A DNA stretch of 59,345 nt, from NCBI GenBank assembly GCA_024279275.1, contig JAJRRS010000166.1, positions 1-59,345 of the forward strand, given 5' to 3'. The notes beneath the pieces are model-generated. The model worked only from the letters and a program-made list of their open reading frames with translations, was not told where the DNA came from and searched no databases. The position numbers were made by a program, and so were the translations under genes. This DNA comes from Planctomycetota bacterium. Lineage in GTDB: Bacteria > Planctomycetota > Phycisphaerae > Phycisphaerales > Phycisphaeraceae. Positions 9,166-15,755 of the stretch are shown in pieces (positions within the stretch are counted from its first letter, which is position 1; the number at the start of each line of letters is the position of its first letter).

Positions 9166-11895
<2,730 letters not shown>

Positions 11896-11957
11896 GCTGT
11901 AAAAGTTGTAGTGGTTGGCTATACTCGTTCAATGATCTAAACTTGTATCGAGAATAA

Positions 11958-12103
11958 GCCAGCACGCCACCTGTAGGATTGATTGTTGTCGTTGATTCAC
12001 GACAGTGTGCATTAATGCTTGCACATAGGCAGCCCGTGTAACTTGGTATGTGATATTTACACGCGCACTTTAGCGGATGTAGAATCCTGCGGTGGCTGCT
12101 GGC
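11958..12103 (+). ncRNA. Candidate retron ncRNA (msr-msd) upstream of the RT gene
   Basis: A long inverted repeat brackets this segment. The 5' arm is 11958-11980 and the 3' arm 12083-12103. They pair as GCCAGCA/TGCTGGC, GCCACC/GGTGGC and GTAGGATT/AATCCTGC: 21 pairs (one G-U) with only two single-base bulges on the 5' arm. This is the a1/a2 arrangement of retron RNAs. Inside are TGTCGT-loop-ACGACA (11987-12004), TGTGCA-loop-TGCACA (12006-12025) and CGTGTAA-loop-TTACACG (12035-12063), the last in the place expected for the msd hairpin. The 3' arm ends 8 bases before the RT start codon. The branching guanosine is not certain, and the msr/msd border is inferred. Confidence 0.65.
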
Positions 12104-12111
12104 ACTTTTAA

Positions 12112-13911
12112 ATGGCTGGCATGAAAGTAAAACTAGAAAATGATCCCGTAGTCTTGGCCAAACGCTTGACCAGCGATACGTTTCGTTTAAACACGAGAAT
12201 AGATGTAGCGGAATTACTTGAGGTGCCCAACAAGTTTCTCTGTTCCATACTTCGAAAAGGTGGTGATCGCGCTCAATACAATCATTTTAAAATACCGAAG
12301 GCCACCGGTGGCTACAGAAAAATATCATCTCCGCCAAAGAATCTGTCTATACTGCAAAAAAAGCTGGCCGCTATATTACTAGCGGCGCACTCGCCTAAAC
12401 CATCTTCTCACGCATTTCTTAAAGATAGATCTATACGCACAAATGCAGAACCACATTGTGGCTGTAGGAATGTCTTGAATCTTGATCTTAAAGACTATTT
12501 CCCAACGATTCACATTGGGCGTTTTATTGGAATACTAATAGCACCGCCATATCGTCTCGGCAGGCAGGCGTCTTACACAATCGCACAAATCTGCTTTGAA
12601 CATGATGGCAGATTACCTCAGGGCGGAGCCACCTCGCCAATAGTTTCGAATATGGTTACCAAGTCTTTAGATGATTCTCTTCAGAACCTTGCAGCGTCTT
12701 CAGGATGCAAATATACGAGGTATGCAGATGACATAACATTTTCGACTACCCGAACGTCCATGCCTTCAGAGTTGTCACGCATTGATAAGGACACCGGTAA
12801 AGTTAGAGTTGGCGGCGCATTGAAGGATGCAATCGATAAAGCAAGCTTCAAAATTAATTACAAAAAGGTTCGCCTCCAGACCTCATTACACACGCAGCGC
12901 GTGACGGGAATAACTGTAAACGAGTTTCCAAACCTCAGGCGATCATATATTAATAATGTTGACTCAATCCTTCAGGGGTGGGCTAAGTATGGGTATGAAA
13001 AGGCATATAAGCACTATATTGCCAAGTGTGGGCTAGACCCCTCATGCTTAAAGAAGAAGCCGTCATTATTGAAGAACGTCTTAGCCGGAAAACTAACATT
13101 TCTTGAAATGGTTCGTGACTCCGACGCACCTATTTGCAGAAGGATTCGTTGGGCTATGAGCGAGTTGATGCCCACGAACATTTCTCCGCCATGCAAACTG
13201 GAGGCACTAAGGTCTATGCCGCTCACAGGACAAAGGGATGGGTTTAGTGGTTGGCAGAATGTCAATAGACGGCTTAGGGCGAGCATTCTCTTTATAGAAG
13301 GAGTGAATGAAAAAGGAGACAAGCAATGCGCATCTGGTTTTGTTGTCGGGAATGACTGCCTCATTACGGCAGGACACATACCGGCTAAACTCAAAGAGAT
13401 TGTCGTACATCATCAGGACTCCGAGTTGATTCCAAGCGAGTGCGTGCACATTAATGAACCAGGAAAGCTCGATGTGGCAGTAATGCTGTTTGATGACGCG
13501 CCGTTCACTGATATTGCGAAAGTGTATGCCCAGCACAGACTACCGGAAGTCGGCGAGGAAGTCGCGGCGATTGGATACCCAGTTATAGCAGGGCGTAACC
13601 CCACAATTGTTATGCATGTCGGAACTGTCGAGGCGATTACTCATGGATATAAAGACGGGGTATTCATTCAGACAAGTTTCGCATCGGGTGGCGGGCTTAG
13701 CGGCGGTGTGTTGGTTGATAAAGGTGGGTTGGGAATAGGAGTTATGGTGGAAAATGTCTACTTGGAAACAAAAGGCCACGGCGGCCAAGAGGCTGTAGTT
13801 GCGCCCGCCAGACTATATGGTCAAGCAACACCAATTGAGTACGCGTTACTACTTCGTAGATATGGCGCGGATTTTAGAGATAGGTGGCTGAAAAAGAAAC
13901 CGGCAGAGTGA
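12112..13911 (+). CDS. Retron-type reverse transcriptase fused to trypsin-like serine protease
   Basis: 599 residues. Residues 1-330 are a retron RT: NAxxH as NAEPH at 111-115, motif A LNLDLKDYFP with Asp125, PQGGATSP at 169-176, YADD at 204-207 and the retron VTG motif at 264-266. Residues about 385-575 look like a chymotrypsin/trypsin-fold protease: His422 in ITAGH, Asp454 in KLDVAVML and Ser530 in GGGLSGG. There is no signal peptide, so it should act in the cytoplasm. Retron RTs use an adjacent ncRNA as primer and template to make msDNA, and known retrons are anti-phage systems in which the effector is released when msDNA or host functions are disturbed. Here the protease would be the effector; this is inference. 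Codons are much more AT-rich than in the neighbours, suggesting transfer. There is no clear Shine-Dalgarno; ATG 12121 is an alternative start. Confidence 0.93.
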   Translation: MAGMKVKLENDPVVLAKRLTSDTFRLNTRIDVAELLEVPNKFLCSILRKGGDRAQYNHFKIPKATGGYRKISSPPKNLSILQKKLAAILLAAHSPKPSSHAFLKDRSIRTNAEPHCGCRNVLNLDLKDYFPTIHIGRFIGILIAPPYRLGRQASYTIAQICFEHDGRLPQGGATSPIVSNMVTKSLDDSLQNLAASSGCKYTRYADDITFSTTRTSMPSELSRIDKDTGKVRVGGALKDAIDKASFKINYKKVRLQTSLHTQRVTGITVNEFPNLRRSYINNVDSILQGWAKYGYEKAYKHYIAKCGLDPSCLKKKPSLLKNVLAGKLTFLEMVRDSDAPICRRIRWAMSELMPTNISPPCKLEALRSMPLTGQRDGFSGWQNVNRRLRASILFIEGVNEKGDKQCASGFVVGNDCLITAGHIPAKLKEIVVHHQDSELIPSECVHINEPGKLDVAVMLFDDAPFTDIAKVYAQHRLPEVGEEVAAIGYPVIAGRNPTIVMHVGTVEAITHGYKDGVFIQTSFASGGGLSGGVLVDKGGLGIGVMVENVYLETKGHGGQEAVVAPARLYGQATPIEYALLLRRYGADFRDRWLKKKPAE

Positions 13912-13951
13912 TTTCATCAGTCGGTTACAAAAGGTAACGCATAAACGGAGA

Positions 13952-14653
13952 TTGCGTTTGCGATTCACTGTTGATTCAAACCAGTTGCAACTAAATCGGA
14001 AGACCACGGTGGGTTTGGCGGTGTTTCCGGTGGCGCTCACGGCCATCATGGTGGTTTTATTAACCACGGACGCGACGCGTGGGGTTGCGATGCGACTATC
14101 GCGTGAGAACAGTGTGATTGAGTTTGTCTCGGCGGGGCTGATGCTGGGAGGCGGGGTGTTTGGGTTGCGTCTTTCGTGGAAAGCGAAGGGGCAAGGGGAT
14201 GTGTGGTGGGTGTGGGGGTTTTTCCTGTTGTTTTCGTTGGGGATGTTGTTGGTCGGGATGGAGGAGATCGCGTGGGGGCAGAAGCTGTTTGGGTTTGCGA
14301 CGCCGGCGGTTGTGGAGGGGATCAATCAACAGGGGGAGATGACGCTGCACAACCTGCCGGGGCTGCACGGGCACTCGGAGATGATGTGGGCGGCGTTTGG
14401 GATAGGGGGGCTGGCGGGTGTGTTTATCAGGCGGTGGCGGGTGTTTGAGAAGATTGCAACGCCTGGGGTTTTGATCGCGTGGTTTGTGATGATCCTTCTG
14501 GTTGCGTTGCCGTCGGCGTGGAACGAGTTCGGGTCGATCGAGCGTCGGGTAGACCTGCTGATCGACCGGATGGATGAGTTCAACGAGATGCTGATCGCGA
14601 TGGTGAGTTGTCTGTATGTCTGGCTGTGTGCGAGGCGGGTGTTGTTGAATTAA
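13952..14653 (+). CDS. Multi-pass membrane protein, function unknown
   Basis: About 233 residues with six hydrophobic segments (VFPVALTAIMVVLL, FVSAGLMLGGGVFGL, VWGFFLLFSLGMLLVG, MWAAFGIGGLAGVFI, VLIAWFVMILLVALP, MLIAMVSCLYVWLC). A short conserved-looking motif GMEEIAWGQKLFG follows the third segment; similar EEI-WGQ motifs occur in uncharacterised bacterial membrane proteins. The start is uncertain: the frame opens at a TTG with GGAG too close, and an internal start is possible. It is GC-rich like the chromosome, not AT-rich like the retron just upstream, so it is probably not part of the retron cassette. Confidence 0.7.
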   Translation: MRLRFTVDSNQLQLNRKTTVGLAVFPVALTAIMVVLLTTDATRGVAMRLSRENSVIEFVSAGLMLGGGVFGLRLSWKAKGQGDVWWVWGFFLLFSLGMLLVGMEEIAWGQKLFGFATPAVVEGINQQGEMTLHNLPGLHGHSEMMWAAFGIGGLAGVFIRRWRVFEKIATPGVLIAWFVMILLVALPSAWNEFGSIERRVDLLIDRMDEFNEMLIAMVSCLYVWLCARRVLLN

Positions 14654-14666
14654 TCGAGGGGGTTAT

Positions 14667-15755
14667 TTAATTCTGTGGCGTGAGGTCGTTGAGTGTGATG
14701 GGGTGTTGGATATGCACGTTGCCTTTCGGGTCGATGATCTGCAGTGTGGCGGTGGGGGCGGGGCGGTTCCAGTCTATTGTGATCAGGCCGAAGTTTGGAA
14801 GGTGGTAGCGTTGCCCGACGCGGTGGCGGTTGGATTCGTCGTTTTCTAGGCCTGATTTGTTCAGGCCGCTGGCGGTGATGTCGTAGAGCGGGTAGGGGGC
14901 GGTGTCATCATCGAGGCGGGAGAGTTCGGCGTGGTGGCGATCGCCTGAGAGGAAGACGACGCCATTGGCTTTGGTTTCACCGATCAATTCGATCAGGCGT
15001 GTGCGTTCTTTTGGGAACATGGCCCAGGTTTCCCAGCCGTGTTCTTCTGTGAGGAATTGGATACTCGAAACGATCAGCCGAAGGTCGGCGGGTTGTTCGA
15101 GTTGTTCTTTGAGCCAGTCCCACTGTGTTTTGCCGAGGACGGTGACGAACGGGTCTGGGTTGGGGACGTATCGGCCGGAGGTTGGGTAGTGTTCACCCTT
15201 GGTTCTGCGTGTCAGTCGGCTGCGGTGGTAGCGTGTATCCAGGAGGATGACCTGGACGCGTTGGCCTTGCGGGCCGAACATCTGTGCGTGGTAGACGCCC
15301 TCACGGCTGCGCCGGGGTGAGTCGCGAGGGACGCCCCAAAAGTCAAGAAAGACTGACTGTGAGACGGCTTTGTTTGGGTGTTCTATGCCTGCGTCGTTGA
15401 TGCCGTAGTCGTGGTCATCCCAGGTTGCGAGGATGGTGCAGGCTTTTTTGAGTTGGCGGAAGCCGGGGTGGTTGCCGAGTTGCTTGTAGCTTTGGCGGAG
15501 TTCGTCTTCGTCAACGGTGTCGGCGTAGACGTTGTCGCCTACGAAGATCATCAAGTCGGGGTTGGCTTGTGCGATGGCACGGAAGGCGGGGATGGGCCTG
15601 CGTGGATCGGAGCATGAACCGAAGGCGATGCGTTGCAGGGCAGGTTTGGCGGAGGGTTGCGTGTCGGGCTGAGTTTCAGGCTGGGCTATGGTGGGTGCTG
15701 CGATCAACAACAGGAAGAGCATTGCCACACGGGGGATAGTTCTTGCTTTGTTCAT
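14667..15755 (-). CDS. PhoD-like alkaline phosphatase / metallophosphoesterase, secreted
   Basis: 362 residues. An N-terminal signal peptide (MNKARTIPRVAMLFLLLIAAPTIAQ) is followed by a PhoD-type metallophosphatase domain. Likely metal and catalytic motifs in order are AFGSCSDP, FVGDNVYADT, TWDDHDYG, and FLSGDRHHAEL near residue 260. This family hydrolyses phosphomono- or diesters outside the cytoplasm with Fe/Ca or similar metals. It lacks the extra N-terminal domain of Bacillus PhoD and so belongs to the shorter PhoD-like group. It ends 14 bases from the convergent upstream membrane gene. Confidence 0.88.
   Translation of the reverse strand: MNKARTIPRVAMLFLLLIAAPTIAQPETQPDTQPSAKPALQRIAFGSCSDPRRPIPAFRAIAQANPDLMIFVGDNVYADTVDEDELRQSYKQLGNHPGFRQLKKACTILATWDDHDYGINDAGIEHPNKAVSQSVFLDFWGVPRDSPRRSREGVYHAQMFGPQGQRVQVILLDTRYHRSRLTRRTKGEHYPTSGRYVPNPDPFVTVLGKTQWDWLKEQLEQPADLRLIVSSIQFLTEEHGWETWAMFPKERTRLIELIGETKANGVVFLSGDRHHAELSRLDDDTAPYPLYDITASGLNKSGLENDESNRHRVGQRYHLPNFGLITIDWNRPAPTATLQIIDPKGNVHIQHPITLNDLTPQN

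What the first reader, a model, noticed from the sequence alone, without database searches (positions are those of the whole stretch)
11958..12103. Upstream inverted repeat and internal hairpins define a candidate msr-msd RNA
A 21-bp repeat with only two bulges brackets 102 bases that contain three hairpins, and it ends 8 bases before the RT start. This is where retrons place a1-msr-msd-a2. The 21-pair a1/a2 stem is longer than in Ec86 (about 12). No TAGC branch motif is clear right after a1, so the priming guanosine may differ from well-known retrons.
Basis: partly seen in the sequence, partly recalled or inferred. Interest (0 to 1): 0.85.

Follow-up and report, generated by a model that had tools for sequence, protein, structure and literature searches.

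The report
Retron RNA beside an RT-protease gene
The inverted repeat is the template RNA of a retron, a bacterial anti-virus device that copies part of a small RNA into DNA; here it sits just before a gene that fuses the copying enzyme to a protein-cutting enzyme, a recognised but little-studied retron kind (type XI).

Summary
Arms 11958-11980 and 12083-12103 form 21 pairs with two one-base bulges around 102 nt, ending 8 nt before ATG 12112. The ORF (12112-13911, 599 aa) is a retron RT fused to a trypsin-like protease (PADLOC RT-Protease_XI, E 8.5e-122; intact YADD, NAXXH, VTG and H422/D454/S530).

Two tests that did not use the window as input support an msr-msd RNA. A covariance model of the msr hairpin, built from 29 relatives without the window, finds 11970-12021 as its best site in 59 kb (E 9e-4; next best E 7.5). 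In a swap test over 39 loci each a1 pairs far better with its own a2 than with others' (0 of 20,000 permutations); the window's arms beat all 38 swaps both ways.

Mapped on the Eco2/Ec67 cryo-EM structure, the priming base is most likely G11981 (context TTGA, not TAGC; Eco2 uses CAGA), the msr hairpin is 11985-12006, and about 65 nt (12017-12081) are copied. The cassette is GC-poor and absent at this spot in sister genomes.

It is a new member of a known kind. Gating of the protease by msDNA is inference. No msDNA or phage test was available.

The parts
11958..11980 (+). a1: 5' arm of the a1/a2 inverted repeat
   Evidence: 21 pairs with 12083-12103; a1 prefers its own a2 over 38 swapped partners in both directions, -39.0 kcal/mol
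11981..11981 (+). predicted priming (branch) guanosine, context TTGA
   Evidence: First base after a1; same place as rG15 of Eco2 (PMC12405507; L215); many relatives share G-A-T-T just before the hairpin. Inference.
11982..11984 (+). single-stranded spacer ATT (counterpart of Eco2 ssRa)
   Evidence: Alignment with Eco2 rA16-rU19 and relatives
11985..12006 (+). msr hairpin, 8 bp, loop UGAUUC
   Evidence: Held-out model R1 hit 11970-12021, 24.3 bits, E 9.2e-4; hairpin covaries in relatives
12007..12016 (+). msr tail ending UUAAU (counterpart of Eco2 ssRb); predicted RT stop just after it
   Evidence: Eco2 ssRb rG43-rU51 ends in UUAAU too. Inference.
12017..12081 (+). predicted reverse-transcribed msd template, about 65 nt; cDNA would start with dT opposite A12081
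   Evidence: Mapping on Eco2, whose msd is 67 nt. The predicted cDNA holds a 7-bp CGTGTAA/TTACACG stem, but its fold is no better than shuffles (z -1.09). Inference.
12083..12103 (+). a2: 3' arm, preceded by AG as in Eco2-type RNAs
12112..13911 (+). RT-protease fusion, 599 aa
   Evidence: PADLOC RT-Protease_XI E 8.5e-122 over aa 25-553; Pfam RVT_1 and Trypsin_2
12184..13146 (+). retron RT domain (aa 25-345): NAXXH at N111-H115, YADD 204-207, VTG 264-266
   Evidence: Foldseek best match Eco2 9lm3, E 4.7e-25
13258..13776 (+). trypsin-like (HtrA/DegS-type) protease domain (aa 383-555), catalytic residues H422, D454, S530
   Evidence: Triad invariant in 14 RT-protease fusions; Foldseek DegS 3lgv E 4.1e-10

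Best explanation
A type XI retron. One transcript carries a1-msr-msd-a2 and an RT-protease fusion. The a1/a2 stem brings the priming G11981 next to the template end. The RT binds the msr hairpin, primes on the 2'-OH of that G, and copies about 65 nt (12081 back to about 12017) into DNA branched to the msr. By analogy with Eco2, the RT-msDNA complex is taken to hold the fused protease inactive until a phage nuclease or DNA-binding protein damages the msDNA; the freed protease then cuts target proteins and stops infection. Shown here: RT family, protease family, intact motifs, and the RNA's arms and msr hairpin by comparative tests. Inferred: branch base, template limits, msDNA production, autoinhibition, trigger, target, defence. 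The confidence given is for the retron-RNA reading (msr-msd of a type XI retron); the gating of the protease by msDNA I would put at about 0.6.
For: RT-Protease_XI match over both domains and Pfam RVT_1 + Trypsin_2. Retron motifs and triad conserved. Held-out msr model hits the window and, in dozens of other held-out RT loci, sites mostly within about 120-310 nt upstream of the RT match. a1/a2 swap test 0/20,000. Msr hairpin covariation, 8 of 8 pairs with changes on both sides. Msr landmarks shared with Eco2. Eco2 is also the closest solved structure. GC 43-49% against 56-61% in the flanks, and other genes at this spot in same-genus genomes, consistent with an acquired defence cassette.
Against: No RNA or msDNA data. 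The closest full-length fusion, L121, was not found by R1 at E<=10, although its upstream folds into 22-pair arms with a hairpin. L121 and L132 have A, not G, at the place of G11981. The predicted cDNA folds no better than shuffles. Several Eco2 RNA-contact residues differ (R184->S, H281->Q). The msr hairpins in the model were chosen for having a stem, so alone is biased.
Confidence: 0.9

Rival explanations
1. The retron RNA is right, but priming is from another guanosine, for example G11976 or G11977 in GGATT, with a shorter a1/a2 stem.
For: L121 and L132 keep GGATT/AATCC but have A where the window has G11981. The review notes that the stem may contain the priming base (PMC6868368).
Against: G11981 lies in the same alignment columns as the G of GATTT in many relatives, and AG precedes a2 as in Eco2-type RNAs.
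Confidence: 0.2
2. The stem is only a regulatory 5' leader or terminator-like structure of the RT gene.
For: It lies directly before the ORF, and a TTTT run follows the stem by two bases.
Against: The msr hairpin model and its position upstream of many retron RTs; the 102-nt interior; no terminator call on this strand.
Confidence: 0.04
3. A decayed retron that no longer makes msDNA or defends.
For: Single copy in one genome, absent from same-genus genomes; long branch in the RT tree; H281->Q and R184->S at Eco2 contact sites.
Against: 599-aa ORF without interruption, all catalytic residues intact, 21-pair arms intact.
Confidence: 0.1

Closest known systems
Retron type XI (PADLOC RT-Protease_XI, PDLC02959/PDLC02960)
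   Same: Single gene; RT followed by trypsin-like protease; both domains match in one stretch.
   Different: Only 36% identical to the nearest full-length relative found, L121 from Acidobacteriota. Whether this type's ncRNA has been described elsewhere could not be checked: the Mestre 2020 classification and the Khan retron census are not held.
Retron Eco2 / Ec67 (type I-C, RT-Toprim)
   Same: Closest solved RT by sequence and by fold; one msr hairpin with the same GUUG...CAGU closing pairs, a UUAAU tail, AG before a2, msd of similar length, non-TAGC priming context.
   Different: Effector is a protease, not a Toprim RNase; a1/a2 arms of 21 pairs, longer than in Ec67; only 8 nt between a2 and the ORF.
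Retron type XII (RT-TIR)
   Same: Next best RT model; fused single-gene design.
   Different: No TIR domain; the NCBIfam RT-TIR match covers only the RT part and is below its cut-off.
Nuclease-protease pairs of Hachiman, AVAST, Lamassu and DRT (PMC12799240)
   Same: Trypsin-like protease fused to a defence enzyme.
   Different: There the protease is at the N-terminus and activates the product of a neighbouring MBL nuclease gene; here it is C-terminal, and the adjoining genes are aconitase and a membrane-protein-like ORF that sister genomes keep without the retron.

Membership tests
Retron | RT with YADD, region X NAXXH and region Y VTG | tested here: met
   N111-A-E-P-H115, Y204-A-D-D207, V264-T-G266; definitions from PMC6868368
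Retron | Non-coding RNA upstream with complementary 5' and 3' ends (a1/a2) | tested here: met
   21 pairs; covariation by swap test, 0/20,000
Retron | Msr hairpin of the kind the RT recognises | tested here: met
   Held-out model hit, E 9.2e-4; binding itself not tested
Retron | Priming guanosine in or next to the inner end of a1 | tested here: inconclusive
   G11981 fits, but its context is TTGA, not one of TAGC/CAGA/CAGC/GAGC/ACGC, and L121/L132 have A there
Retron | Production of 2'-5' branched msDNA | not testable with these tools
   Needs expression and sequencing
Retron type XI | RT and trypsin-like protease in one gene | tested here: met
   PDLC02960 E 8.5e-122 over aa 25-553; Trypsin_2 407-544; triad H422 D454 S530
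Retron type I-C (Eco2/Ec67) | C-terminal Toprim domain | tested here: not met
   Pfam finds Trypsin_2, no Toprim; the Eco2 solved chain aligns only over the RT
Any Rfam 15 RNA family | Match to a curated covariance model | tested here: not met
   No match up to E 10 in 11880-12130; the genuine Ec67 locus has no gathering-level match either, so this is uninformative about retron membership

The most novel reading that the evidence does not exclude
An RNA/DNA-gated protease: the msr RNA bridges RT domains into a trimer, as in Eco2, and this sets three DegS/HtrA-like protease domains, a family that naturally works as trimers, so that damage to the msDNA by phage switches proteolysis on.
Probability: 0.25. 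Interest if true: 0.7.

Novelty: new member of a known kind. Interest (0 to 1): 0.42.

Why it matters
I found no paper in the held library on the mechanism of an RT-protease retron. This locus gives a compact system from a bacterium of a group where only 2 of 392 sampled phylum genomes (this one included) had a comparable match, with exact predictions for its RNA, priming base and cDNA. If the protease is msDNA-gated, it would show that one RNA-DNA sensor can drive Toprim, TIR or protease effectors, and it would give a target for asking what the protease cuts.

Tried and rejected
Single-protein scan of viral contigs found nothing. Counting long stems in MFE folds upstream of 178 RTs against shuffles was weak (10 or more pairs: 154/178 against 62% of shuffles), so it was replaced by the model-anchored swap test. 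Rfam gave no family. No promoter-like site was found just upstream of a1, and the sites found were at shuffle level. A DNA hairpin in the predicted cDNA was no better than chance. Clean empty site: same-genus genomes carry other genes between aconitase and the next conserved gene, so insertion ends cannot be read to the base. RT tree: the protease label needs 8 changes, but starred branches do not exclude one origin, so repeated fusion is not claimed. Mestre 2020 and the retron census could not be read.

Full report
OBSERVATION. The inverted repeat is at the stated coordinates: a1 11958-11980 pairs with a2 12083-12103 in 21 pairs with two one-base bulges, enclosing 102 nt and ending 8 nt before the ATG at 12112. 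The fold of 11940-12115 has z -4.65 against dinucleotide shuffles, 0 of 200 as stable. In a tiling of the whole window it is the single best near-perfect enclosing stem, although stems of 19-20 pairs occur elsewhere. Only the first of the internal hairpins has comparative support.

THE GENE. ORF 12112-13911 (599 aa) matches PADLOC RT-Protease_XI over both domains (E 8.5e-122) and Pfam RVT_1 and Trypsin_2. It carries NAXXH (111-115), YADD (204-207), VTG (264-266) and an intact protease triad H422/D454/S530, invariant among 14 RT-protease fusions. The AlphaFold model (mean pLDDT 77.5) matches Eco2 best (E 4.7e-25), and its C-terminal part matches DegS (E 4.1e-10).

THE RNA: INDEPENDENT TESTS. 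Upstream regions of related RTs were read from viral contigs, GTDB genomes and plasmids. From 29 of them, without the window, an msr-hairpin model was built. It finds the window at 11970-12021 with 24.3 bits, E 9.2e-4; the next site in 59 kb has 10.2 bits, E 7.5. It also finds many other held-out loci, mostly within about 120-310 nt upstream of the RT match, the true Ec67 RNA of E. coli S10 (31.2 bits; a near-identical Ec67-like RNA was in the training set, so this one is not independent) and two RTs of the same class, L222 and L223. The hairpin in the training set covaries at all 8 pairs (0/500 shuffles on the covariation score), with the caveat that these hairpins were picked for having a stem. 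To test a1/a2 without that bias, 39 loci located by the model were used: the 31 nt around a1 were paired with the downstream region of their own and of every other locus. Summed own energy is -1033.5 against -643 +/- 23 for permuted partners, 0 of 20,000. The window's own duplex, -39.0, beats all 38 swaps in both directions. Some loci are close relatives of each other, so 39 loci are not 39 independent cases; relatedness also makes the swapped partners better than unrelated ones would be.

MAPPING ON Eco2. The Eco2 paper (PMC12405507) places the branch at rG15, a spacer at 16-19, the hairpin at 20-42, a tail at 43-51 and the copied template from rG52. The Ec67 RNA of E. coli S10 (L215) fits those numbers. 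By alignment the window has G11981, ATT, hairpin 11985-12006 (closing pairs GUUG/CAGU as in Eco2), a tail ending UUAAU at 12016, and a template 12017-12081, 65 nt, with G12082 before a2. The review PMC6868368 records CAGA for Eco2 and TAGC for most others; the window has TTGA. Eco2 residues F46, R56, K245 and R247, which hold the msr tail, are conserved (F59, R69, K252, R254); R184, which contacts rG15, and H281, which stacks on the hairpin loop, are not (S189, Q288).

CONTEXT. The cassette has 43-49% GC against 56-61% around it. DNA similarity with same-genus genomes stops at the end of aconitase (about 11885-11893) and resumes near 14018-14071 in four of them, further downstream in G431; those genomes carry other genes there. 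RNA and RT-protease therefore lie together in one segment that the sister genomes lack.

MECHANISM. Eco2 is an RNA-bridged trimer whose effector is thought to be shielded by the msDNA until phage DenB damages it (PMC12405507). The same logic with a protease is my best explanation; steps from branch formation onward are inferred. HtrA proteases work as trimers (general knowledge), which makes the trimer idea worth testing but is not evidence.

NOVELTY. Type XI is an existing class in PADLOC, so this is a new member of a known kind. The primary papers on the class were not readable here, so I cannot say whether its RNA has been drawn before.

Noticed in passing
L222, reverse complement about 1322-2953 (G556, same class): The RT nearest in sequence (44%) lies next to a trypsin-like protease read in another, overlapping frame, with an msr hairpin hit upstream: either a split type XI retron or a frameshift in a fragmented assembly.
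   Followed up: partly
window 11896-14020: Variable spot after aconitase: same-genus genomes carry other genes here (a DinB-like ORF, other small ORFs, and a transposase-like ORF in L220; names by eye, not by search).
   Followed up: partly
L132, L003 and L005: Related RTs with other C-termini that are not the trypsin-like domain, yet with msr hairpins of the same kind in L132 and L003: the same RT-RNA core seems to carry many effectors.
   Followed up: no
L038 and L039: RT-protease genes followed by an ATP-dependent endonuclease or ATP-binding protein gene (in L039 with an IS3 transposase between), unlike the single-gene layout of the window.
   Followed up: no
window 14000-15750: Strong positive GC skew (0.25-0.44) over the genes just downstream of the retron.
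   Followed up: no
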